Positions 23,007 to 35,919 of a stretch of 40,612 bases of DNA are shown piece after piece (position 1 is the stretch's first letter; each line of letters starts with the position of its first letter). The notes beneath the pieces were generated by a model, which searched no databases, was not told where the DNA came from, and saw nothing but the letters and a program-made list of their open reading frames with translations. Source of the DNA: Peptoniphilaceae bacterium (GTDB taxonomy: Bacteria; Bacillota; Clostridia; Tissierellales; Peptoniphilaceae); assembly GCA_022769085.1 (NCBI GenBank), contig JALEKO010000036.1, positions 1-40,612 of the forward strand, in the 5' to 3' direction. The position numbers and the translations under genes were made by a program.

Positions 23007-23015
23007 ATAAATTTT

Positions 23016-23049
23016 AAAAAGTCTCCCATAAATTTACGGGAGACTTTTT
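23016..23049. terminator. Bidirectional terminator between folT and hbd
   Basis: Perfect 12-bp stem AAAAAGTCTCCC/GGGAGACTTTTT around a 10-nt loop, with A/T tracts on both sides. It closes folT on the plus strand and the butyrate operon on the minus strand. Confidence 0.92.
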
Positions 23050-23062
23050 ATATTTAATTATA

Positions 23063-23905
23063 TTATTTATTATAATCGTAAAATCCTTTACCAGTTTTTC
23101 TACCAAGTTGTCCTGCTCTTACCATTTTCTTTAAAAGTACGTGAGCTCTATATTTAGGATCTCCATATTCTGTATATAATACATCCATTATTGCAAGTAC
23201 AACATCAAGTCCAATTAAATCTCCAAGTTCTAATGGACCCATAGGATGATTTGCTCCTAATTTCATTGCTTTATCTATGTCTTCAACATTTGCAACACCA
23301 TCAGCATAAATTCCAATTGCTTCATTAATCATTGGAATTAAAACTCTATTAACTACAAATCCTGGAGCTTCTTCTACTTCTACGGGGTCTTTACCTAATT
23401 CTTTTGAAAGTTCAAAAATCTTATCAAAAGTTTCTTGGCTTGTTTTTTTACCCTTTATAACCTCAACTAGTTTCATTGCAAAAACAGGGTTAAAGAAATG
23501 CATACCAATGACTTTTTCAGGTCTTTGTGTAACAGATGCTATATCTGTTATTGAAAGTGAAGATGTATTTGATGCAAGTATTGCATCTTCTTTTACTTTT
23601 TCATCAAGTTCTTTAAAAATTGATTTTTTTATTTTTGGGTTTTCACTTGCTGCTTCAACAACTACATCACAATCTGAAAAATCACTATAATCTGTTGTGA
23701 AATGAATTCTAGCAAGTGTTTCATTTTTTACTTCCTCAGAAATTTTTCCCTTTGAAACTGATTTTGAAAGTGCTCTTTCTATATTTGATTTTGCTTTTTC
23801 TAAAAATTCATCAGCAATATCACATACTACTACTTCAAATTTGCCTGCTGCAACTTGTGCAATGCCAGAACCCATTGTTCCTGATCCAACTACTCCTAAT
23901 TTCAT
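23063..23905 (-). CDS. hbd: 3-hydroxybutyryl-CoA dehydrogenase
   Basis: A 280-residue enzyme reducing acetoacetyl-CoA to 3-hydroxybutyryl-CoA. The N-terminal Rossmann domain opens '[17 protein letters not shown]'; '[12 protein letters not shown]' and the catalytic '[19 protein letters not shown]' follow, then the helical dimerisation domain with '[16 protein letters not shown]' and '[16 protein letters not shown]'. Start 23905 is preferred over 23911: the AGGAG site would touch the first ATG but lies 7 nt from the second, and the family begins there. It is the last gene of the thl operon, just before the bidirectional terminator. Confidence 0.96.
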
Positions 23906-23914
23906 TTTCATCTC

Positions 23915-24688
23915 CTATTTATTTTCAAATTCAAATTTTTCTTTATTCAAAAATGCCTTCATTCCATTTTTCTGATCTGATGTTGTAAAACACTCTGCAA
24001 AATATTTTTCTTCGTATTTAACAGCATCTTCAATATCTTTTTCTCTTCCAGAATCTATTGCTTTTTTAGAGAAAGAAACAGCTTTTGGTGCGTTTGAAGC
24101 AATTATTTTTGCTAATTTATTAACTTCTTCGTCAAGCTCTTCAAGCTTATAAACTGAATTAACAAGCCCAATTCTTAAAGCTTCATCAGCCTTAATATTT
24201 CTTGCACAATATATCATTTCTTTAGCTTTTCCAAGTCCTATTAGTCTCTGAAGTCTTTGTGTTCCACCAAAGCCTGGTGTTATTCCAAGACCAACTTCAG
24301 GTTGCCCAAAAAGTGCTTTTTCACTTGCAATTCTTATATCACAGGCACAGGCGAGTTCACATCCTCCGCCAAGAGCAAATCCATTTACTTTAGCTATTAC
24401 TGGGCAATGAAGTTTTTCAATTTTTCTAAATACATCATTACCTTTTATTCCGTAAATTTCTGCTTCTTCTTTGGTTTTATTAACCATTTCAGCTATATCA
24501 GCACCAGCAATAAAGCTTCTTCCCTCTCCAGTTATAATTAAAACGTAAATGTCTTCATCATTTTCAATTTCATCAAGTAAACTATCAAGTTCATCTAAAG
24601 TATTTGTATTAAGTGCATTTAGTGCTTTAGGTCTATTTATTGTAATAGTTGCTATATGATCTTTTTTGTCAAATAAAATATTTTCCAT
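23915..24688 (-). CDS. crt: Short-chain enoyl-CoA hydratase (crotonase)
   Basis: A 257-residue crotonase, dehydrating 3-hydroxybutyryl-CoA to crotonyl-CoA. The oxyanion-hole and active-site segments are intact: 'FIAGADIAEM', 'ALGGGCELACACDIRIASE' and 'FGQPEVGLGITPGFGGTQRL', the last two carrying the catalytic glutamates. It follows etfA by only 4 nt. The purine-rich upstream sequence has no clear AGGAGG, so translation is probably coupled to etfA. Confidence 0.96.
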   Translation of the reverse strand: MENILFDKKDHIATITINRPKALNALNTNTLDELDSLLDEIENDEDIYVLIITGEGRSFIAGADIAEMVNKTKEEAEIYGIKGNDVFRKIEKLHCPVIAKVNGFALGGGCELACACDIRIASEKALFGQPEVGLGITPGFGGTQRLQRLIGLGKAKEMIYCARNIKADEALRIGLVNSVYKLEELDEEVNKLAKIIASNAPKAVSFSKKAIDSGREKDIEDAVKYEEKYFAECFTTSDQKNGMKAFLNKEKFEFENK

Positions 24689-24692
24689 TTTT

Positions 24693-25721
24693 TTACGCTT
24701 TCTTTGCTTTCTTTTCTTTTATAAGCTTAATAAGTTGAGGAATTACTTTATGAACATCTCCAACTATTCCAATATCTGCAACTTCAAATATTGGAGCATC
24801 ATGATTTTTATTTACTGCAATAATAAGGTCGCTTTCTTCCATTCCAGCTAAATGTTGAATTGCTCCTGAAATTCCAAGTGCTATATATAAGTTTGGTCTT
24901 ACAGTTTTTCCTGTTTGACCAACTTGACGATCTTTATCAAGCCATCCTGAATCTACAACTGCTCTTGAACCTGAAACTGTAGCTCCAAGTACTTCTGCAA
25001 GTTCATAAGCTTCTTCTATATTTTCTTTTGAACCAATTCCTCTTCCAACTGAAACAAGTATTTCTGCATCTTCAATATTTATTTTTTTCTTTGTATCAAC
25101 TTTTGATTCCAAAAGCTCTACTGAAAAATCTTCTTCTGTGAAATTAACATCAAGATTAATAATTTCAGCTTTTCTACTTAAATCAGGTTCTGATTTTCTC
25201 ATAACACCAGGTCTAACAGTAGACATTTGTGGTCTAACCTCTTCTGATGTAATCGTAGCCATCAAGTTACCACCAAATGCAGGTCTTGTCATGAGTAAAA
25301 GATGATTTTCTTTATCAATTTCAAGTTTTGTACAATCTGCAGTAAGTCCTGCTCCAATTCTTGATGCAACTCTTGGTGCAAGTACTCTTCCTATTGATGT
25401 AGCACCAAAAAGAACAATTTCAGGTTTAATAGATTTTATCGCTTCAAAAGTTGCAACTGTGTATGGTTCTGTCAAATAGTCTTTCAACTTTTCATCTTCA
25501 ACAAGTATTACTTTGTCTGCACCATAGCTTGCAAGCTCATTTGCAAGTTCTTTTACTTCATATCCTACTAAAATTGCAGTAAGCTCGCACGATAAATCTC
25601 TTGCAAGTTCTTTTCCTTTTCCTAAAAGTTCAAGAGAAACTCCTTGAAGTTTGCCATCTCTTTGTTCTGTTACAACGCAAACTCCTTTATAATCTGTTGT
25701 ATTTTTATTTAATTTAACCAT
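24693..25721 (-). CDS. etfA: Electron transfer flavoprotein alpha subunit
   Basis: A 342-residue EtfA. Domain I (about 1-205) is followed by the FAD-binding domain II with 'VSVGRGIGSKENIEEAYE', 'GSRAVVDSGW', 'QVGQTGKTVRPNLYIALG', 'ISGAIQHLAGM' and 'AVNKNHDAPIFEVADIGIVGD'. With EtfB it shuttles electrons to or from butyryl-CoA dehydrogenase; in clostridial Bcd-Etf complexes NADH oxidation drives both crotonyl-CoA and ferredoxin reduction by flavin-based bifurcation. It directly follows etfB in the operon (9-nt gap). Compare the second, truncated ETF-alpha domain inside the 31718-33649 fusion. Confidence 0.96.
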   Translation of the reverse strand: MVKLNKNTTDYKGVCVVTEQRDGKLQGVSLELLGKGKELARDLSCELTAILVGYEVKELANELASYGADKVILVEDEKLKDYLTEPYTVATFEAIKSIKPEIVLFGATSIGRVLAPRVASRIGAGLTADCTKLEIDKENHLLLMTRPAFGGNLMATITSEEVRPQMSTVRPGVMRKSEPDLSRKAEIINLDVNFTEEDFSVELLESKVDTKKKINIEDAEILVSVGRGIGSKENIEEAYELAEVLGATVSGSRAVVDSGWLDKDRQVGQTGKTVRPNLYIALGISGAIQHLAGMEESDLIIAVNKNHDAPIFEVADIGIVGDVHKVIPQLIKLIKEKKAKKA

Positions 25722-25730
25722 TTTTCACCT

Positions 25731-26516
25731 CTAAATTATAAAGTCTTCCGATAATTTATTTATAATTATCTCTGCACCCTCTTCGGCTGTAACATCAAAT
25801 AACTTTCCAGCTGTTTTTGCACCTTTTGTGAAACTCTTTCTAACTCTTGTTGGTGAACCCAAAAGTCCAAGATTTTCAGGATCAGCTTTTACATCGTCGG
25901 CTGTCATTATTCTTATTACATCATTTTTATATGATTCATAAACTCTTGAAACTTTCATATATCTTGGTGAGTTCATTTCTCCTAAAGTTGTAATTAGACA
26001 AGGGAATTTAGCCTTTAATAAATGATATCTATCTTCAAACTGACGTTTTACAGTTATATCTTTATCAGTATAATCAACAATTTCTTCAACATATGATATT
26101 GACGGAATTCCCAAATGTTCTGCAGTTTCTGGACCTACTTGAGCTGTATCACCATCTATTGCCTGTCTTCCTGCAATTATTAAATCATAATCAAGTTCTC
26201 TAAGGCATGCTGCTAATGCTTGAGAAGTAGCCCATGTGTCAGCTCCTCCAAATTTTCTATCTGTAAGTAAAATACATTCGTCAGCACCCATTGCATAACA
26301 TTCTCTAAGTGCTTCTTTTGCCTGATTTGGCCCCATTGAAACAACTGTTACATGTGCATTTATTTTATCTTTTATCTTTAAAGCTTCTTCAAGTCCTGCT
26401 TTATCGTCTGGATTTACAATACTTTCAACACCATCTCTTATCATTGTGCCTGTTTTAGGATCTAATTTAACCTCATTTGTATTTGGAACCTGTTTAACTA
26501 AAACTACTATATTCAT
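25731..26516 (-). CDS. etfB: Electron transfer flavoprotein beta subunit
   Basis: A 261-residue EtfB. It opens 'MNIVVLVKQVPNTNEVKLD', with 'INPDDKAGLEEAL'-like segment 'IVNPDDKAGLEEALK', 'VSMGPNQAKEALRECYAMGADE' and 'IIAGRQAIDGDTAQVGPETAEHLG'. The lead-in and the NPDDK segment resemble ETFs of clostridial Bcd complexes, in which this subunit holds the bifurcating FAD. That functional assignment is an inference from resemblance. It sits between acd and etfA, the normal order. Confidence 0.95.
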   Translation of the reverse strand: MNIVVLVKQVPNTNEVKLDPKTGTMIRDGVESIVNPDDKAGLEEALKIKDKINAHVTVVSMGPNQAKEALRECYAMGADECILLTDRKFGGADTWATSQALAACLRELDYDLIIAGRQAIDGDTAQVGPETAEHLGIPSISYVEEIVDYTDKDITVKRQFEDRYHLLKAKFPCLITTLGEMNSPRYMKVSRVYESYKNDVIRIMTADDVKADPENLGLLGSPTRVRKSFTKGAKTAGKLFDVTAEEGAEIIINKLSEDFII

Positions 26517-26525
26517 TATTAACTC

Positions 26526-27671
26526 CTAACTTAATAAGTCCCCGGAAATTACCATTTTCATTACTTCACTTGTACCTTCATATATTTCGGTAATTTTTGC
26601 ATCTCTAAACATTCTTTCAACTGGATAATCTCTCATATATCCATATCCACCATAAAGTTGAACACATTTCGTAGTAACATACATTGCAGTTTCTGCAGCA
26701 AAAAGTTTTGCATTTGCAGCCGATACATTGTAGGCTCTTCCTTCTTGTTTGTCCATAGCAGCTTTATATACTAAAAGTTGAGCTGCATTTACTCTATTTT
26801 TAAGATCTGCAAGTACAAATTGAGTATTTTGGAATTTTGCTATTGGTCTGTTGAACTGTTTTCTTTCTTTAACATATTCAATTGTTTTCTCTAAAGCACC
26901 TTCAGCTATTCCTAATGCCTGAGCTGCAATTCCAATTCTTCCACCATCAAGCGTGGATACAGCTATTTTAAAACCTCTTCCTTCTTTTCCGAGTAAATTT
27001 TCTTTTGGAACTTTACAATTTTCAAAAATTAACTCACAAGTTTTACTTCCTCTGATTCCCAATTTTTTTTCAGGAATCCCAATTGAAAATCCTTCAAAAT
27101 CTTTTTCAACTATAAATGCAGAGATTCCTCTATTTCCTTGAGATTTATCTGTCATAGCAAAAATAATATAGCTATCTGCAATTCCTGCATTTGTGATGAA
27201 TATTTTTGAACCATTAAGTATATAGTATTCTCCTGACTCATCTAATGTTGCAGTAGTTTGTTGCATTGATGCATCTGTTCCAGCATTTGGTTCTGTAAGT
27301 CCAAATGCACCTAATTTTTTACCACTTGCAAGAGGAACTAAATATTTTTGCTTTTGTTCTTCAGTTCCATATGCTTCTATTGGCCATGAGCCAAGTGATG
27401 TATGTGCTGATAAGATTACACCTGTTGTAGCACATTTTTTTGACAATTCTTCAACTGCTAATATATATCCTAAATAGTCTCCGCCTTCTCCACCGTATTC
27501 TTTAGAATATGGTATTCCAAAAAATCCAGCTTTTTTCATTTTTTCTATTGTCTCAAGAGGCGCTCTTTCTTCTTCGTCTATCTCTTGAGCTATTGGTTCA
27601 ACTTCATTTTCTGCAAATTCTCTATACAATTTTCTAAGCATTTCATGCTCAGGGCTTAAATTAAAATCCAT
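26526..27671 (-). CDS. bcd: Short-chain acyl-CoA (butyryl-CoA) dehydrogenase
   Basis: A 381-residue acyl-CoA dehydrogenase, normal length for butyryl-CoA dehydrogenase. The flavin-binding segments 'GAFGLTEPNAGTDAS' and 'YILNGSKIFITNAG' are present, as are 'STLDGGRIGIAAQALGIAEGA' and the catalytic base Glu365 in 'ITEIYEGTSEV'. In this setting it runs mainly as a crotonyl-CoA reductase with EtfBA. It lies directly upstream of etfB and downstream of thl. Its sequence is close to the dehydrogenase domain of the fusion protein encoded 6 kb away, an apparent paralogue. Confidence 0.94.
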   Translation of the reverse strand: MDFNLSPEHEMLRKLYREFAENEVEPIAQEIDEEERAPLETIEKMKKAGFFGIPYSKEYGGEGGDYLGYILAVEELSKKCATTGVILSAHTSLGSWPIEAYGTEEQKQKYLVPLASGKKLGAFGLTEPNAGTDASMQQTTATLDESGEYYILNGSKIFITNAGIADSYIIFAMTDKSQGNRGISAFIVEKDFEGFSIGIPEKKLGIRGSKTCELIFENCKVPKENLLGKEGRGFKIAVSTLDGGRIGIAAQALGIAEGALEKTIEYVKERKQFNRPIAKFQNTQFVLADLKNRVNAAQLLVYKAAMDKQEGRAYNVSAANAKLFAAETAMYVTTKCVQLYGGYGYMRDYPVERMFRDAKITEIYEGTSEVMKMVISGDLLS

Positions 27672-27716: not shown

Positions 27717-28895
27717 TTATCTTTCAACTAATACGGCAGTTCCCATTCCTCCACCAATACAAAGTGTGGCAAGACCTTTTTTAACATCTCTTTTTTCCAT
27801 TTCATATAAAAGTGTTGTTAAAATTCTAGCACCACTTGCTCCAACAGGGTGACCAATTGCAATAGCTCCACCATTTACATTAGTTTTTTCTTCATCAAGT
27901 CCAAGCTCTTTTACAACTTCTATAGATTGAGAAGCAAAAGCTTCATTAACTTCTGCAAGTTCAAGATCTGAAACTTCCCAATTTGCTTTTTTCAAAGCTT
28001 TTCTTGTTGCACTTATTGGTCCAAGTCCCATTATTCTAGGATCAATTCCGCCAGATGCATATTCAACTATTGTTGCAAGAGGTTTTACGCCAAGCTCTTT
28101 AGCTTTGTCTTCACTCATTATAACTAGACAAGCTGCTCCATCATTTATTCCTGATGCATTTCCAGCTGTAACTGTACCATCTTTAATAAATGAAGGTCTA
28201 AGTCTTGCAAGAGACTCTTTTGTAACGCCATCTCTTATATATTCATCATCTTCAACCACTGTGACTTGACCTTTTCTTCCTTTAACTTCAACAGGAACTA
28301 TTTCATCTTTAAACCTTCCCTCAGCTCTTGCTTTTGAAGCTTTTTGCTGACTTTTTGCTGAAAATTCATCTTGCATCTCTCTTGTAATATTAAATTCTTT
28401 TGCAACATTTTCAGCTGTAACTCCCATATGATAGTCATTAAATGCATCCCAAAGACCATCTTTAATCATTGTGTCAACAAATGTTTTGTCATTCATTCTT
28501 GCACCCCATCTTGCTTCTTTAAAAGCATATGGTGCATTTGACATTGATTCTGTTCCTCCTACAAGAACTACATCTGCATCAGAACATTTAATCATTTCTG
28601 CTGCAAGTTCTACAGATCTTAATCCTGAACCACAAACCATATTAATTGTCATTGCAGGTGATGTTACAGGAATTCCTGCATTTATTGAAATCTGTCTTGC
28701 AACATTTTGTCCAAGTCCACTTTGAAGAACGCAACCTAAAATTGTCTCATCAATATCTTCAGGTTTAATACCAGCTCTTTTAATAGCTTCTTTTGCTGCA
28801 ATTGTTCCAAGTTCAACTGCAGATACAGTTTTGAAAGCTCCTCCGTTTGATCCTACAGGTGTCCTGGCTGCTGATGCAATAACTACTTTTTTCAT
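27717..28895 (-). CDS. thlA: Acetyl-CoA C-acetyltransferase (thiolase)
   Basis: A 392-residue biosynthetic-type thiolase condensing two acetyl-CoA to acetoacetyl-CoA. The nucleophile Cys88 is in '[15 protein letters not shown]', His349 in '[16 protein letters not shown]' and Cys379 in '[14 protein letters not shown]', so the active site is complete. An ACGGAGGA ribosome site precedes the ATG. It is the first gene of the butyryl-CoA operon, under the Rex-type operator, whereas in the classical clostridial cluster crt comes first. Confidence 0.96.
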
Positions 28896-28952
28896 TTTTT
28901 CCTCCGTGTTCGATATTTTTTTGTCTTAAATTATTTTCATTTTATTTTGTAT

Positions 28953-28970
28953 TTGTTAATTATTTAACTA
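28953..28970 (-). promoter_or_regulatory. Predicted Rex operator at the thl promoter
   Basis: TTGTTAATTATTTAACTA matches the Rex consensus TTGTTAA-n4-TTAACAA at 13 of 14 fixed positions. It begins 5 nt downstream of the -10 box, covering the predicted start site, where a bound repressor would block transcription. Rex releases DNA when NADH is high, which fits a pathway that consumes NADH. No rex gene is in the window. Confidence 0.8.
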
Positions 28971-28975
28971 TAAGT

Positions 28976-29004
28976 ATTCTATTTCATTGTTATATTTTTG
29001 TCAA
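28976..29004 (-). promoter_or_regulatory. Promoter of the thl-bcd-etfBA-crt-hbd operon
   Basis: Minus-strand TTGACA (28999-29004), a 17-nt spacer and TAGAAT (28976-28981). It lies between the terminator of the CoA-transferase operon and the Rex-type site, which leaves about 75 nt of leader. Confidence 0.87.
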
Positions 29005-29029
29005 ATAATTTTTTTTATTTTTTATTCCA

Positions 29030-29061
29030 AAAAAGGGCACGATTATCCTAGTGCCCTTTTT
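29030..29061 (-). terminator. Terminator after the CoA-transferase gene
   Basis: Perfect 11-bp stem AAAAAGGGCAC/GTGCCCTTTTT around a 10-nt loop, with a T tract on the minus strand. It ends 3 nt after the CoA-transferase stop and separates its operon from thl. Confidence 0.9.
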
Positions 29062-29064
29062 CAA

Positions 29065-30408
29065 TTATCTTTTATTTGATTTTCTCCAAATTTTCATTTC
29101 TTCTGCTTCTTTTATAAGTTCTTCTCTAAAATCAGGATGAGCTATTGATATTAAAGCTTCAGCTCTTTGCCACGTCGACATTCCTTTTAGATTTACAAGC
29201 CCATATTCAGTAACTACATACTGTGTATTTGCCCTTGTATCTGTTATTATTGTTCCTTCTCTGAATGAAGGAGTTATATTTGAAGTTCTTTTTCCAGTTT
29301 TTTTATCTAAATGAGAAGATTTTAAACAAATAAAACTCTTTCCTCCGTTTGATCTATACGCCCCTATTACAAAATCAAGCTGTCCTCCAGCACCTGAAAT
29401 ATGCCTTTTACCTGTACTTTCGGCTGAAATTTGTCCAAAAAGATCAACTTCAACTGCAGTATTGATACTCATGAAATTATCTAGTTGAGAAATTACTTTT
29501 ACATCATTTGTATAATCTACTGGAGCACTCATTATTTCAGGATTGTCATCTATATAATCATACATTTCCTGTGTTCCTGCACCGAATGCAAAAACTTGGC
29601 GATATCTGTCAAGATTTTTTCTTTTTCCAGTAATTTTTCCCGCTTTTGCAATCTCAACCATACTATCAACATACATTTCAGTGTGAATTCCTAAATCTTT
29701 TAAATCACTTTCTGCTATATAGTGGGCAATTGCATTAGGCATTCCGCCAATTCCAATTTGTAGTGTAGAACCATCAACTATTTCATTAACTACAAGTTTT
29801 GCTACTTCTTCATCCTCTTTTCCATATGTTCCAGATGCAAGTTCTCTCATCTTAGGGTTATTTCCTTCAATTACATAATCAACTTGAGATATGTTGATTT
29901 CAGATTCAAAACCCCCAAGAACTCTTGGCATATTTTCATTAACTTCTACAATTATTTTATCTGCAACATCGCATACAGCCATTAGATGTGATGCATTTGG
30001 GCCAAAGTTAAAGAATCCATGTTTATCCATTGGAGAAACTTGAAATACAGCTAAGTTTATATGTTTAATATTATCTCTGTAATATCTAGGAAGTTCAGAA
30101 TATTTAATAGGTGCATAAAAGGCAGAGCCTGTATTTATATATTTTCTTTCAAATCCTGTTGCATGCCAGATATTCCAAGTAAAGTGTTCTCCATTAGGGT
30201 CTTTTTCTAAAACTTCAGGAAGACTTAATGCAACACCGCCTCTAATATTTACATCAAAAAGTTCATCTTTTCTTTTTGAAAGCGCTTCATCAAATGCCTG
30301 AGGATGTCCCGAACACCAACCGTAGTCTATAAAATCCCCACTTTTTACCAATTTTGCAGCATCGTCAGCATTAATTAACTTTTTTTGATAATCTTTTTGA
30401 AAATCCAC
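29065..30408 (-). CDS. but: Butyryl-CoA:acetate CoA-transferase (acetyl-CoA hydrolase/transferase family)
   Basis: A 447-residue family I CoA-transferase, which would release butyrate from butyryl-CoA while forming acetyl-CoA. The N-terminal '[17 protein letters not shown]', '[15 protein letters not shown]', the likely catalytic Glu244 in '[10 protein letters not shown]' and the substrate-region motif '[23 protein letters not shown]' match butyryl-CoA/4-hydroxybutyrate CoA-transferases. Butyrate is favoured over 4-hydroxybutyrate because the full butyryl-CoA pathway is adjacent. The start is GTG at 30408, 5 nt after AAGGAGG. A 32-nt palindrome separates it from fprA. It is the last gene of the fusion-fprA operon. 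Confidence 0.88.
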
Positions 30409-30424
30409 TTAATCCTCCTTAGGG

Positions 30425-30456
30425 TAATATTAAAGGCTTTAAAGCCTTTAATATTA
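30425..30456. repeat. Perfect 32-nt palindrome between fprA and the CoA-transferase gene
   Basis: TAATATTAAAGGC and its exact complement (30425-30437 and 30444-30456) flank TTTAAA, itself palindromic. It overlaps the fprA stop and ends 10 nt before the ribosome site of the next gene. There is no T tract on the minus strand, so it is more likely an mRNA-processing or stability hairpin, or a protein site, than a strong terminator. Confidence 0.8.
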
Positions 30457-31701
30457 TTTACTTTTCTGTTGCCTAGTCTTTTCTTTGTCTTCTCTTGTTC
30501 TTTTTATTGAATCAAATACACCATCAACCAAAGAATCTATTTCTTCTTCTTTTGAATAATTTAAAGAAGATGTGATTGTTACAGTTTCAGGTCTAACATC
30601 CATTAACTGCATTTCGTTATCAAAAAAGTCTTCGAGTCTATCAGCTACTTTTGGAGCCCATGAACCATTCTCAAGAATAGAAACTGTTCTATTTCTAACA
30701 TTTAATGCCTTCATATCATTTACAAAATCTTTCATTTTTGGATAAACATGCAAATTATATGTTACAGATGCAATTATTAAATTACTATATTTAAATGTTT
30801 CGGCTATAAGTGTAGAAACATCAGTATTTGAAACATCTCTTACTGAAATATCAGTAAGTCCTCTTTCACACAATTTTGTTGCTATTGCCTGTGCTGCATA
30901 CTCTGTATTTCCATACATTGATGCATATACTATAAGTGCACCTTCTTTTTCTGGTTCATATCTTGACCATTTGTCGTATTTATCGATTATATAACCAAAA
31001 TTATTTCTCCAAACAAGTCCATGAAGTGGGCAAATATAATTGATTTCAAGTGTTTGAGCTTTTTTAAGTACCGCTTGGACAAATGTTCCATATTTTCCAA
31101 CAATATTTGTATAATATCTTCTAGCCTCATCAAGCCAATCTCTATCAAAATCAACTTCATCATTAAATAATCTTCCATCATTTGCTTTAAATGAACCAAA
31201 AGCATCTGCGGCAAAAAGAATTTTATCTTGTATATCATAACTCATCATTACTTCAGGCCAGTGAACCATAGGTGCTGTTACAAATGTTATATCATGCTTT
31301 CCAAAATTCATTGAATCGCCTTCTTCAACCTGTATTGTCCTGTCATCTACTTTAAATCCAAACTGTCTCATTATCATTATAGATTTTTCGGTTGATATAA
31401 CTTTTAAATTTGGATATTTATCTAAAAGAAGTTCAATAGATGCACCATGATCTGGCTCCATATGATTTATTACCAAGTAATCAAGATCTCTTCCTTCAAG
31501 AACTTGTTCTATATTGTTCAAAAATTCTCTTGCAATGCTCCAATCAACAGTGTCAAAAACGACTGTTTTCTCATCTTTTAAAAGATATGAATTATAGGAA
31601 ACTCCATCTGGAATTGGAAATATATTTTCAAATAATGCAAGTCTATGGTCGTTTCCACCTATATAATAATAATCATCTGTAATTTTTCTTACGTTAAACA
31701 T
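30454..31701 (-). CDS. fprA: Flavodiiron protein (A-type flavoprotein, FprA family)
   Basis: A 415-residue two-domain protein. Residues 1-250 form the metallo-beta-lactamase-like diiron domain with all ligands present: His80, Glu82, Asp84 and His85 in 'NHMEPDHGASIE', His147 ('PMVHWPE'), Asp166 ('AADAFGSF') and His227 ('CPLHGLVWR'). From about residue 256 a flavodoxin domain carries the FMN loop 'SMYGNTE'. The family reduces O2 to water or NO to N2O and normally takes electrons from rubredoxin. This copy has no rubredoxin domain of its own. The gene 16 nt upstream encodes a protein that ends in rubredoxin, which suggests a direct partner. Confidence 0.95.
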   Translation of the reverse strand: MFNVRKITDDYYYIGGNDHRLALFENIFPIPDGVSYNSYLLKDEKTVVFDTVDWSIAREFLNNIEQVLEGRDLDYLVINHMEPDHGASIELLLDKYPNLKVISTEKSIMIMRQFGFKVDDRTIQVEEGDSMNFGKHDITFVTAPMVHWPEVMMSYDIQDKILFAADAFGSFKANDGRLFNDEVDFDRDWLDEARRYYTNIVGKYGTFVQAVLKKAQTLEINYICPLHGLVWRNNFGYIIDKYDKWSRYEPEKEGALIVYASMYGNTEYAAQAIATKLCERGLTDISVRDVSNTDVSTLIAETFKYSNLIIASVTYNLHVYPKMKDFVNDMKALNVRNRTVSILENGSWAPKVADRLEDFFDNEMQLMDVRPETVTITSSLNYSKEEEIDSLVDGVFDSIKRTREDKEKTRQQKSK

Positions 31702-31717
31702 AAAATCCTCCTAAGTA

Positions 31718-33649
31718 TTACTGTCTATCTTCTGGGTATTCAACTTTAATGAAGTGATCTTTTTCTTCACCGCAGTCTGGGCATATCCATGAGTCAGGCA
31801 ATTTATCAAATGTAGTACCTGCTTCTATATCATTCTCTTCATCTCCAACTTCTGGGTCATATTCATAACCACAACCTATGCAAACATAATGTTCTTTTGA
31901 AGGCGCAAGTTTTCTTGGCTTTGAAGTTTTGATTTTTTTCATAGGAGGCGCTGGTTTCTTCTCTTCTCCATTGTCGAGTTCTTCAATTAATAGTGGAAGA
32001 ACCTCAAGTGCATCACCAACAATACCATAATCACAGTTTTTAAATATTGCTGCTGACTCATCATTGTTGATTGCAACTATAGTTGATGCATTTTTTATTC
32101 CCTTTAAATGTTGTCCTGCACCAGAAATACCAACTGCAATATATAAATTTCCGTTGAATGTCTGTCCACTCATTCCTACATATCTTTCAAGTGGTACATA
32201 TTTTAAGGTTTCAGCTACAGGTCTTGATGAACCAACTGATGCTCCTGCTTGATATGCAAGTTTTTCAATAAGTTTCATGTTTTCTTTACTTCCAATTCCT
32301 TTTCCCGCAGAAACAACTCTTTGTGATTGAGAAATTGGCGTATTAATATCTATTCCAACTGTAAAGTCATATCCGTCTTTTTTAAGTGCTGCTACAAGTT
32401 CTTTTACCTGATCTTTAAGAGTACCTTCGGTGAAAATTTGTTTCTTTCTATTTCCTGTAATTGAATTTTTCTTTTTAGCTTTTGCAACTGTAGTTTTAGG
32501 AGCTTTTCCAACAACGCTTCCTCCAACTACAACTCTCATTATTTCGTTAGTTCCTTCATAAATTTGTGTGATTTTAATGTCTCTATAAAATCTTTCAACA
32601 TCAACACCCTTAATGAATCCTGAACCACCATACATTTGAAGAGCTTCATCTGCTATTTCATGAGCAAGATCAGATGCAACTTGTTTTGCCATTGCAGCTT
32701 CTACACTATAATTTCCGTGATTATCTTTAATTTCAGCTGCAGAATAAACCATAAGTCTTGCTTGTCTTAGCTTTGTTTTCATATCTGCAAGCTTAAATGT
32801 ATTTACTTGTAAGTGTGCAATTGGAATTCCAAACTGCTCTCTATCTTTTGCATATGTTACTGCAGACTCAAAAGCTCCTTGTCCAATTCCGAGTGCTTGA
32901 GAAGCAATACCAATTCTTCCTCCATCAAGTGTGGAAAGAGCTATTTTAAATCCTTGTCCTTCTTTTCCAAGTAAATTTTCTTTTGGAACAATTACATTTT
33001 TGAAATGAAGTTCTGCTGTTGCAGATGCTCTAATTCCAAGTTTGTCATATGGATCTGAGAATGTAAATCCTTCCCATCCTCTTTCAACTATGAATGCTGA
33101 AATTCCGTGAGATCCAATTCCAGGTGTTGTAACTGCAAATACTACATATATGTCAGCTTTTGTGGCATTTGTAATAAATATTTTTTTACCATTTAAAATA
33201 TAATGATCTCCATCTAAAACGGCAGTGGTTTCTGTTCCACTAGCATCAGAACCTGCATTCTCTTCTGTAAGACCAAAAGCTCCGATTTTTTCTCCTTTTG
33301 CTAAAGGAACTAAATATTTTTTCTTTTGTGCTTCAGTTCCGTAATTAAAAATTGGCCATGATCCTAATGATGTATGTGCTGATAAAATTACTCCAACACT
33401 TGCATCAACCCTTGACATTTCTTCAACTGCAATCGCATAATGCTGATTATCAAGACCTGCACCGCCATACTCTTTAGGAAATGGTATTCCCATTAACCCT
33501 AACTCTCCCATTTCTTTTACAATATCATCTGGAAAATTTTCTTCCTGATCATTTGCAAAAGCAAATGGTTTTACCTTTTCTTCGGCAAATTCTCTTACTT
33601 TTTTTCTAAAGGCTTCCTGAGCCTCTGTTGTGGTATATCTTTGAGACAT
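31718..33649 (-). CDS. Acyl-CoA dehydrogenase - ETF-alpha FAD domain - rubredoxin fusion protein
   Basis: A 643-residue three-part protein. Residues 1-383 are a short-chain acyl-CoA dehydrogenase with the catalytic base Glu365 ('ITQIYEGTNEIM'). A Lys-rich linker leads to an ETF-alpha FAD-binding domain II (about 405-558: 'SAGKGIGSKENMKLIEKL', 'GSSRPVAETLKY', 'VGISGAGQHLKGI', 'YGIVGDALEVLP') that lacks ETF domain I and any beta subunit. After a Pro/Lys linker comes rubredoxin (588-640) with C590-x2-C593-G-Y and C623-x2-C626-G. Electrons could pass from acyl-CoA through two FADs to the iron centre inside one chain, then to FprA encoded next. The start 33649 has an AGGAGG site; the frame extends further upstream (33754) across the promoter and is rejected. 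Function is not established. Confidence 0.93.
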   Translation of the reverse strand: MSQRYTTTEAQEAFRKKVREFAEEKVKPFAFANDQEENFPDDIVKEMGELGLMGIPFPKEYGGAGLDNQHYAIAVEEMSRVDASVGVILSAHTSLGSWPIFNYGTEAQKKKYLVPLAKGEKIGAFGLTEENAGSDASGTETTAVLDGDHYILNGKKIFITNATKADIYVVFAVTTPGIGSHGISAFIVERGWEGFTFSDPYDKLGIRASATAELHFKNVIVPKENLLGKEGQGFKIALSTLDGGRIGIASQALGIGQGAFESAVTYAKDREQFGIPIAHLQVNTFKLADMKTKLRQARLMVYSAAEIKDNHGNYSVEAAMAKQVASDLAHEIADEALQMYGGSGFIKGVDVERFYRDIKITQIYEGTNEIMRVVVGGSVVGKAPKTTVAKAKKKNSITGNRKKQIFTEGTLKDQVKELVAALKKDGYDFTVGIDINTPISQSQRVVSAGKGIGSKENMKLIEKLAYQAGASVGSSRPVAETLKYVPLERYVGMSGQTFNGNLYIAVGISGAGQHLKGIKNASTIVAINNDESAAIFKNCDYGIVGDALEVLPLLIEELDNGEEKKPAPPMKKIKTSKPRKLAPSKEHYVCIGCGYEYDPEVGDEENDIEAGTTFDKLPDSWICPDCGEEKDHFIKVEYPEDRQ

Positions 33650-33744
33650 ACTAAACCTCCTTAAATTTAATAGCCATTTTGTCTTTTGTTTTGTAGATAT
33701 ATTTTTAAAAATATAATTATATAAAAATATCCTTACTAAAATAT

Positions 33745-33773
33745 ATAGTATCACCTTTATATTTTTTTGTCAA
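33745..33773 (-). promoter_or_regulatory. Promoter of the fusion-fprA-but operon
   Basis: Minus-strand TTGACA (33768-33773), a 17-nt spacer and TACTAT (33745-33750), with an extended -10 TGA. The leader of about 90 nt to ATG 33649 contains no Rex-type site. Confidence 0.75.
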
Positions 33774-33993
33774 CGTTTTCTATTATATTCTTCTTATACC
33801 CAATTTTTAGCCATTAATCATTAATTTATATACCTTTTTTAAATATTTTTTTGAAAATTTTTTTTAAAATTAATTAATTTTTTATTTAATACTTATTATT
33901 TTTGATGTAAAATTCTTTTTCTTAAAAAATATAAATCTAATATTTATTTTTATTATTCCATTTAATCTATCAATATTATAAAATTTTTATAAT
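33774..33993. other. AT-rich intergenic spacer
   Basis: This is the only sizeable stretch without a gene (33650-34047 in all). The flanks hold the fusion-operon promoter and leader on one side and the ABC-operon terminator on the other. The middle 220 nt is almost pure A/T with no open frame, repeat or convincing signal. Confidence 0.7.
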
Positions 33994-34025
33994 AAAAAAC
34001 ATTGTCACTAAAGACAATGTTTTTT
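33994..34025 (-). terminator. Terminator of the ABC exporter operon
   Basis: Perfect 13-bp stem AAAAAACATTGTC/GACAATGTTTTTT around a 6-nt loop, with T's on the minus strand, 22 nt past the last ABC gene. Confidence 0.9.
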
Positions 34026-34047
34026 AAAATTATTTTTAAATAAACTT

Positions 34048-35919
34048 TTAAGCTAGTTCAAGCTTTCCTGTATAAAGTTTATAATATGTTCCTTTTTCTT
34101 TCATAAGAGACTCATGATCGCCCCTTTCAATTATTTCTCCATGATCCATAACCATTATTACATCTGAGTTTCTTATTGTAGATAATCTGTGAGCAATTAC
34201 AATAGATGTTCTTCCAGTCATTATTGTATCCATTGCATCTGTTACTTTTATTTCTGTTGATGAATCTATAGAGCTTGTAGCCTCATCTAAAATCAACATA
34301 GGCGGTTCAGCAATTGCTGCCCTAGCTATTGATATTAACTGATTTTGCCCTTGTGAAAGGCTAGATCCATTGCCTTCTATTACAGTTTCATATCCATTTG
34401 GAAGTCTTTCAATAAATGAATTTGCATTTGCCATTTTTGCAGAAACTTTTATTTCATCAAAATTTGCATCAAGCCTTCCATATCTTATATTTTCTTCTAT
34501 TGTATCAGTAAACATCGATGTATCTTGCAAAACCATCGCAAATGCTTTTCTAAGTGAAGGTTTACTTATTTCCTTTATATCTATATCATCAATATAAATA
34601 TTTCCAGAATCTACATCATAAAATCTTGTAATAAGATTTGTAATTGTGGTTTTCCCAGCCCCTGTTGAGCCGACAAAAGCAACTTTCTGACCTTCTTTTG
34701 CATAAAAAGATACATCTTTTAGTATTTTATCTTTTTTATTGTAACTGAAATTTACATGGTCAAAAACAATTTTTCCTTTAAGTTCTTTAAATTTAAAACT
34801 TCTTTTGTCTTCTTGAGGAATTTTCCGTGCATATCTTCCTGTTTGAATTTCACTCTCTGTAATATTTCCTAAATTATCTACAGAACATCTTACAAGTCTT
34901 ATAACTCCTTCATCTTCTTCTTCTTTCATATCTAATATTTCAAAAATTCTTTCAGCCCCTGAAAGAGCCATTAAAATCATATTTGACTGTTGCGAAATTA
35001 TATTTATTGGTCTTTGAATATTTTTACAATACTGAAGGTAAACTGATAATGCTCCTATAGTTAAAGCTCCATTTATAGCAAAGAAGGCTCCTAAAACACA
35101 TGTTAATGCAAAATTTATATTTGATAAATTTATCATTACAGGTACGAGTTTTCCAGAATTTATATTTGCAGCAGTTCCTGCTTTTCTAACTTCTGAATTT
35201 TTTTGGTCATACCTTTTTATTGCCTCATTTTCATAGTTAAAAACTTTAACTTCTTTTTGACCTTCAAGCATTTCTTCTATAAAGGCATTAAGTTCACCTA
35301 ATTTTTTTTGCTGTCTTGCAAAAAATCCTGCTGACCTTGAAACAATTGTTCTTGCCCAAAAAAGCATTGCAAATATGAAAAAGAATGTTAATATAAAGAG
35401 CTTCCAATTAATATGAATCATCATTACAATTGTTGAAACAAACATTAAAATCGAAGTTAAAACATTAGTTATTGATACAGCTAGTGCCTGATCTATAATA
35501 TCAACGTCATTTGTAAAACGACTCATTATATCACCGTTTTGGTTGGTATCAAAAAATTCTATAGGCATTTTTTGAATTTTAATGAAAAGTTCATCTCTTA
35601 ATTTTTTTGTAACATATTCACTTACATAAACCATAAGCCTTGAATAAAGGTATGTTGTCAAGGTTACAAATACATAAAGAATTGAAAGTTCAATTACTTG
35701 AGCAAAAAGACCTTTGACATTTGATTTTAGAATATAATCATCTATAATTGGCTGAATTTTATTCATTCCTTCAACCTGACCTATTGTAGAAAATAAAAGA
35801 GAGATTATTACTATAAACATAACAAATTTTTTTTCAAAAACATATGAAAGAAGTCTTTTTACAGAACTTGACATATTTTGAGGTTTTGTCTTTTTAGATG
35901 AAATTTTAACATCACTCAT
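34048..35919 (-). CDS. ABC exporter, half-transporter with catalytic-type Walker B (heterodimer subunit 2)
   Basis: A 623-residue half-transporter: a membrane domain with six helices (about 35-330), then a nucleotide-binding domain with Walker A 'GSTGAGKTT' (417-425), 'LSQGQ' (521-525) in place of LSGGQ, and 'MLILDEATSSIDSSTE' with the catalytic Glu. The start is ATG 35919, overlapping the upstream gene's end by 8 nt behind AAAGGAG; a longer frame from 35967 is rejected. An insertion (about 350-395) between the two domains is longer than usual. Together with the next gene upstream it should form an LmrCD/TM287-288-like heterodimeric exporter for drugs, peptides or lipids; the substrate is unknown. 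Confidence 0.92.
   Translation of the reverse strand: MSDVKISSKKTKPQNMSSSVKRLLSYVFEKKFVMFIVIISLLFSTIGQVEGMNKIQPIIDDYILKSNVKGLFAQVIELSILYVFVTLTTYLYSRLMVYVSEYVTKKLRDELFIKIQKMPIEFFDTNQNGDIMSRFTNDVDIIDQALAVSITNVLTSILMFVSTIVMMIHINWKLFILTFFFIFAMLFWARTIVSRSAGFFARQQKKLGELNAFIEEMLEGQKEVKVFNYENEAIKRYDQKNSEVRKAGTAANINSGKLVPVMINLSNINFALTCVLGAFFAINGALTIGALSVYLQYCKNIQRPINIISQQSNMILMALSGAERIFEILDMKEEEDEGVIRLVRCSVDNLGNITESEIQTGRYARKIPQEDKRSFKFKELKGKIVFDHVNFSYNKKDKILKDVSFYAKEGQKVAFVGSTGAGKTTITNLITRFYDVDSGNIYIDDIDIKEISKPSLRKAFAMVLQDTSMFTDTIEENIRYGRLDANFDEIKVSAKMANANSFIERLPNGYETVIEGNGSSLSQGQNQLISIARAAIAEPPMLILDEATSSIDSSTEIKVTDAMDTIMTGRTSIVIAHRLSTIRNSDVIMVMDHGEIIERGDHESLMKEKGTYYKLYTGKLELA

What the first reader, a model, noticed from the sequence alone, without database searches (positions are those of the whole stretch)
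28953..29004. Near-perfect Rex operator on the butyryl-CoA operon but none on the fusion operon
A site matching the Rex consensus at 13 of 14 fixed positions overlaps the predicted start of the thl operon. The promoter and leader of the fusion-fprA operon (33650-33773) have no such site although the -35 regions are alike. This predicts that NADH/NAD+ ratio controls butyrate formation while the flavodiiron module follows another signal.
Basis: partly seen in the sequence, partly recalled or inferred. Interest (0 to 1): 0.55.

Follow-up and report, generated by a model that had tools for sequence, protein, structure and literature searches.

The report
Paired Rex operators on butyryl-CoA operon
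The switch DNA in front of this anaerobe's butyrate-building genes looks like a genuine, evolutionarily conserved pair of binding sites for the NADH-sensing repressor Rex, which is ordinary for butyrate producers, while the neighbouring oxygen-removing operon lacks such sites, as most of its relatives' do.

Summary
The site is real. 28953-28970 matches the clostridial Rex consensus at 13 of 14 fixed positions (0.10 such sites expected per window) and sits on the predicted start of thl-bcd-etfB-etfA-crt-hbd. The genome has one rex gene. Both sites recur, exactly 34 bp apart, before thl in the two nearest relatives found. Across the family, 11 of 37 thl genes with their own promoter carry a site of at least 12/14, against 0.53 expected; 0 of 31 internal thl genes do. 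The fusion operon has none (best 10/14), nor do 78 of 79 other fusion promoters, so the contrast is the rule, not a speciality. That operon resembles the known butyryl-CoA oxygen oxidoreductase. One correction: butyryl-CoA:acetate CoA-transferase, the last step to butyrate, lies in the fusion operon, so Rex would govern butyryl-CoA synthesis, not all of butyrate formation. The genome-wide count of consensus-like sites is not above its control: the case rests on position and conservation. Ordinary and well supported; binding untested.

The parts
28953..28970 (-). Rex operator B (TAGTTAAATAATTAACAA on the operon strand), over the predicted transcription start
   Evidence: 13/14 to TTGTTAANNNNTTAACAA; TAG.TAAA.AA.TAACAA kept in G032 and G058
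28987..29004 (-).
   Evidence: 11/14; kept in G032 and G058 at the same 34-bp spacing. Its TTGACA half is also the -35 box, so only the TATAACAA half is independent of the promoter
28976..29004 (-). sigma-A type promoter of the thl operon: TTGACA, 17 nt, TAGAAT
   Evidence: 11 of 12 hexamer positions
27717..28895 (-). thl, acetyl-CoA acetyltransferase
   Evidence: NCBIfam/Pfam
26526..27671 (-). bcd, butyryl-CoA dehydrogenase
   Evidence: acyl-CoA dehydrogenase domains; name from operon context
25731..26516 (-). etfB
   Evidence: NCBIfam
24693..25721 (-). etfA
   Evidence: NCBIfam
23915..24688 (-). crt, short-chain enoyl-CoA hydratase
   Evidence: NCBIfam
23063..23911 (-). hbd, 3-hydroxybutyryl-CoA dehydrogenase
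   Evidence: PRK05808, over cut-off
23015..23050 (-). terminator-like hairpin ending the thl operon
29029..29062 (-). intrinsic terminator between the CoA-transferase gene and the thl promoter
   Evidence: hairpin plus U run, z -4.28
29065..30408 (-). butyryl-CoA:acetate CoA-transferase, last gene of the fusion operon
   Evidence: TIGR03948, 763 bits against cut-off 674.8
30454..31701 (-). fprA, class A flavodiiron protein
   Evidence: ODP and flavodoxin domains
31718..33649 (-). fusion: acyl-CoA dehydrogenase + EtfA FAD domain + rubredoxin (BCR); start taken as the ATG at 33649, not the GTG that opens the 678-aa frame
   Evidence: Pfam; ribosome-binding site cctcc just upstream
33745..33773 (-). 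promoter of the fusion operon: TTGACA, 17 nt, TACTAT; no Rex site
   Evidence: Rex best 10/14, shuffle fraction 0.70
33768..33781 (-). candidate cre (CcpA-type) site AGAAAACGTTGACA over the fusion -35 box; weak
   Evidence: 9 of 10 scored positions of a consensus recalled from memory, 0 of 200 local shuffles as good; but 3 such sites in the window against 2.9 expected

Best explanation
The thl-bcd-etfB-etfA-crt-hbd operon is repressed by the genome's single Rex protein through two operators: B on the transcription start and A over the -35 box, 34 bp apart centre to centre. When NADH/NAD+ is low, Rex holds the promoter shut; when NADH rises, Rex lets go and the cell makes the enzymes that spend NADH turning acetyl-CoA into butyryl-CoA. 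The neighbouring operon (butyryl-CoA dehydrogenase/EtfA/rubredoxin fusion, flavodiiron protein, CoA-transferase), which spends butyryl-CoA on O2 or on butyrate, has no Rex operator and is transcribed independently, with a terminator between the two. Shown here: the sites, promoter geometry, conservation, the rex gene, the gene contents. Inferred: binding, NADH response, repression.
For: Site B 13/14, 0.10 expected per window. One rex gene, NF003990 315.8 bits against cut-off 233; recognition region TASQIRQDLN..G.FGQQGYGYNV nearly as in the solved Rex 3wg9; Rex over cut-off in 113 of 120 family genomes. Both sites and the 34-bp spacing kept in G032 and G058 while much of the rest of the leader has diverged; the exact 52-bp pattern occurs in 3 of 130 family genomes, once each, all before thl. 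A pair as good as the window's arose in 0 of 3000 shuffles (24 and 7 of 3000 for the relatives' weaker pairs). With the published consensus alone, 11 of 37 thl genes with their own promoter (window included) reach 12/14, 0.53 expected; 0 of 31 internal thl genes, 0.16 expected. In C. acetobutylicum, Rex sites are reported on thlA and crt operons, upregulated in a rex mutant (PMC5050335, passages); C. pasteurianum likewise predicted (PMC5367854, passages).
Against: Consensus-like sites with up to 2 mismatches are not enriched in this genome (66, control 81). The perfect consensus is in 1 of 120 family genomes. No other convincing Rex target was found here: of 5 sites with at most 1 mismatch, two of the other four lie in coding sequence, one lies well upstream of a secreted-protein frame and one just after a frame near a contig end. 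The tandem pattern was written from the three genomes that carry it, so finding it there is by construction. 26 of the 37 thl promoters stay below 12/14, including all 5 of genus g22 in that class. I found no binding or expression data for this organism.
Confidence: 0.8

Rival explanations
1. Only site B is a Rex operator. Site A is the -35 box plus a chance ATAACAA, kept in relatives because the promoter is.
For: TTGACA of site A is the -35 box itself. Sites of 11/14 or better are common: 13 in the window, 20.4 expected.
Against: The TATAACAA half of A lies in the promoter spacer, where no sigma contact requires it (established knowledge), and is identical in all three genomes, as is the 34-bp spacing. 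In several Anaerococcus (g24) promoters the best site also lies over the -35 box.
Confidence: 0.35
2. The sites belong to a different regulator with a similar AT-rich palindrome, and Rex acts elsewhere.
For: Family sites deviate from the clostridial consensus at positions 4-5 (TTGATAA, TTGACAA). Consensus-like sites are not enriched genome-wide.
Against: Rex is nearly universal in the family, thl is a reported Rex target in C. acetobutylicum, and enrichment before thl holds with the published consensus unchanged.
Confidence: 0.1
3. A chance palindrome in AT-rich DNA with no regulator.
For: The genome is AT-rich, and up-to-2-mismatch sites are at control level.
Against: Promoter position, conservation across relatives, and 11 of 37 against 0.53 expected.
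Confidence: 0.05

Closest known systems
Rex control of thlA and crt-bcd-etfBA-hbd in Clostridium acetobutylicum and C. pasteurianum
   Same: Same repressor family, same consensus TTGTTAANNNNTTAACAA, same target pathway (PMC5050335 and PMC5367854, passages).
   Different: Here one operon holds thl and all the other genes, rex is not adjacent to it (another contig), the site over the start is paired with one over the -35 box, and the family's sites are looser.
BOOR (BCR-FDP) of Fusobacterium nucleatum
   Same: The fusion protein has the same domain order, Bcd / EtfA C-terminus / rubredoxin, next to a class A flavodiiron protein (PMC12288474 section 8).
   Different: Here a butyryl-CoA:acetate CoA-transferase gene follows on the same strand; activity untested.
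fdpF of Clostridioides difficile
   Same: A flavodiiron O2 reductase in an anaerobe with studied regulation.
   Different: fdpF is Rex-repressed and discussed as an NAD+-regenerating enzyme (PMC11481553, passages); the butyryl-CoA-linked fusion operon here has no Rex site.

Membership tests
Rex regulon (operator) | a rex gene in the same genome | tested here: met
   L001:1009-1662, NF003990 over its cut-off
Rex regulon (operator) | close match to TTGTTAANNNNTTAACAA at a promoter | tested here: met
   13/14 over the predicted start
Rex regulon (operator) | site kept before orthologous targets in relatives | tested here: met
   G032, G058; 11 of 37 thl promoters, 0.53 expected
Rex regulon (operator) | several NADH-linked operons in the same genome share the motif (usual, though not required for one operator) | tested here: inconclusive
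   66 sites against 81 in the control; the other four 1-mismatch sites show no clear target. adhE, ldh and similar promoters were not examined one by one
Rex regulon (operator) | NADH-sensitive binding of Rex to the site | not testable with these tools
   needs gel shift or footprinting
BOOR (butyryl-CoA oxygen oxidoreductase) | Bcd-EtfA(C)-rubredoxin fusion beside a class A flavodiiron gene | tested here: met
BOOR (butyryl-CoA oxygen oxidoreductase) | butyryl-CoA-dependent O2 reduction | not testable with these tools
   needs enzyme assay
CcpA (cre) control of the fusion operon | cre match at the promoter and a ccpA gene | tested here: inconclusive
   9/10 locally but 3 against 2.9 expected in the window; one LacI-family protein best matched by ccpA, 247 bits, below cut-off 442, next to frames that look like HPr and PtsI (by eye)

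The most novel reading that the evidence does not exclude
A two-signal valve on butyryl-CoA: its synthesis opens with NADH through a tandem Rex switch over the -35 box and the start, while its two exits (O2 reduction by BOOR, butyrate release by CoA-transferase) are genetically tied together in one operon under a different, perhaps carbon-responsive (CcpA-type), signal and insulated by a terminator. Butyrate release and O2 scavenging would then be co-induced independently of redox state.
Probability: 0.15. Interest if true: 0.4.

Novelty: new member of a known kind. Interest (0 to 1): 0.22.

Why it matters
It extends the known Rex control of butyryl-CoA synthesis to a family of anaerobes related to Anaerococcus, and indicates that the oxygen-consuming butyryl-CoA oxidase operon is generally not wired to Rex (1 of 79 promoters). 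That gives a testable split between making butyryl-CoA (NADH-driven) and spending it (on O2 or on butyrate).

Tried and rejected
Perfect consensus across the family: 1 of 120 genomes, no enrichment, not useful. A loosened palindrome TTGNYAANNNNTTRNCAA: 0 sites in this genome; the nine sites in G032 and G058 showed no clear Rex target, most lying in or beside unrelated frames. A weighted matrix gave 22 of 37 at p<0.05, but I set its weights by hand after seeing some of these promoters, so I rely on the consensus-only test (where 13 of 37 have p<0.05). PerR and Fur boxes at the fusion promoter: no signal. The 3-mismatch tandem hits in G116 and G109 are not before thl and are taken as chance. A terminator between fprA and the CoA-transferase gene was considered: the hairpin at 30422-30459 has no U run on the operon strand, so I treat the three genes as one operon. 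No Rfam element in 28800-34050. Rows dropped: one search found thl in 80 of 120 genomes; I analysed 68 upstream regions (30 loci plus 38 fetched) and left out 12 genomes (mostly lower identity, one truncated). One of 80 fusion loci (L085) was too short and was dropped. Papers of Ravcheev 2012 and Bouillaut 2019 were not held. Literature searches with Peptoniphilaceae or Anaerococcus among the terms: no listed paper held that name together with the others; listings only, apart from the papers named here. PMC9600882 (passages) also uses the same consensus for Rex sites in Caproicibacterium.

Full report
Where it is. The window is a contig of an unnamed 1.35-Mb assembly, about 82% complete. The nearest named relatives of its fusion protein are mostly Anaerococcus, so I place it in or near the Peptoniphilaceae; this is an inference. 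On the minus strand lie two operons: thl-bcd-etfB-etfA-crt-hbd (28895 down to 23063) and fusion-fprA-CoA-transferase (33649 down to 29065).

The site. 28953-28970 has 13 of 14 fixed positions of TTGTTAANNNNTTAACAA, 0.10 expected per window, and covers the predicted start of the thl operon (promoter 29004-28976). A second site, 28987-29004, has 11 of 14 and covers the -35 box. The finding's own coordinates span exactly both sites, although its text names only one.

Is Rex there? Yes. One gene, 217 aa, matches NF003990 at 315.8 bits (cut-off 233). It aligns nearly along its whole length with solved Rex proteins, best 3wg9, with a nearly identical recognition region and a glycine motif of the kind that binds NAD. 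Rex is over the cut-off in 113 of 120 family genomes.

Conservation. In the two nearest relatives with the same gene order, G032 and G058, both sites are present with the same 34-bp spacing, while much of the rest of the leader apart from the promoter hexamers has diverged. The exact 52-bp pattern is found in 3 of 130 family genomes, once in each, always before thl; the pattern was written from these three. Shuffles of the window's leader gave no pair as good in 3000; the relatives' weaker pairs arose in 24 and 7 of 3000. I classed 68 thl upstream regions crudely by distance to an upstream same-strand frame. With the published consensus only, 11 of 37 with their own promoter reach 12/14 (0.53 expected), and 0 of 31 internal ones do (0.16 expected). 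Related genomes are not independent, so these counts overstate the number of separate events; the 11 come from 6 genera (g1, g3, g14, g24, g32, g35). Site position varies between genera, from over the -35 box (Anaerococcus) to upstream of it (g3, g32); genus g24 is taken as Anaerococcus because contig lengths coincide.

Against. The consensus with up to 2 mismatches is not enriched in this genome (66 against 81 reversed) and no second convincing target was found. Genera such as g22 show no site even at thl genes classed as having their own promoter. So the regulon here is small, or its motif is looser than the clostridial one, and this report supports one operator region, not a regulon.

The fusion operon. 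Its best match is 10/14, as good as 70% of shuffles. Among 79 fusion promoters from other genomes, 1 reaches 12/14 (0.98 expected), and 0 of the 23 nearest (0.51 expected). The exception is Clostridium thermopalmarium (L074, 13/14). The fusion and flavodiiron protein have the make-up of BOOR, shown in F. nucleatum to couple butyryl-CoA oxidation to O2 reduction (PMC12288474 section 8). BOOR draws on butyryl-CoA and not directly on NADH, so freedom from Rex makes sense; C. difficile's fdpF is, by contrast, Rex-repressed (PMC11481553, passages). The candidate for its own signal is a cre-like site over the -35 box, but such sites are no more common in the window than expected, and the LacI-family protein is below the ccpA cut-off.

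The CoA-transferase that releases butyrate (TIGR03948) is the third gene of the fusion operon. A hairpin before it lacks a U run, and an intrinsic terminator follows it. Rex would therefore set butyryl-CoA supply; the last step to butyrate would follow the other operon. That the three genes share one transcript is inferred from spacing and strand, not shown.

Verdict. A sound observation with an ordinary explanation: a new member of the known Rex control of butyryl-CoA synthesis, with a probable tandem operator as a small local refinement.

Noticed in passing
30422-30459: A strong 14-bp hairpin (-17 kcal/mol with flanks, z -3.5) between fprA and the CoA-transferase gene, directly before its ribosome-binding site and without a U run; perhaps an mRNA stabiliser or processing site.
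   Followed up: partly
33768-33781: A cre-like palindrome over the fusion -35 box; several Anaerococcus fusion promoters carry AAACGTTTTC just after the -35 box.
   Followed up: partly
L031, L034, L037, L038, L039 (thl leaders of genus g3): Long thl leaders that share a CCGACA...GTCGG-type hairpin, seen by eye; possibly an RNA element.
   Followed up: no
L074, 168 bp upstream of the fusion gene: Clostridium thermopalmarium has a 13/14 Rex-like site before its fusion gene, the only one among 79 promoters at 12/14 or better.
   Followed up: no
L136, L137 (G032, G058): In the nearest syntenic relatives the CoA-transferase gene precedes thl, with the promoter close behind its stop codon and no evident terminator between; no fusion gene lies nearby in L136, and L137 ends too soon to tell.
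   Followed up: partly
L047, L050, L057-L062: A second, divergent flavodiiron-like gene (39-43% identical to the window's FprA) lies upstream of the fusion gene in several Anaerococcus loci and one Tissierellia MAG (L047).
   Followed up: no
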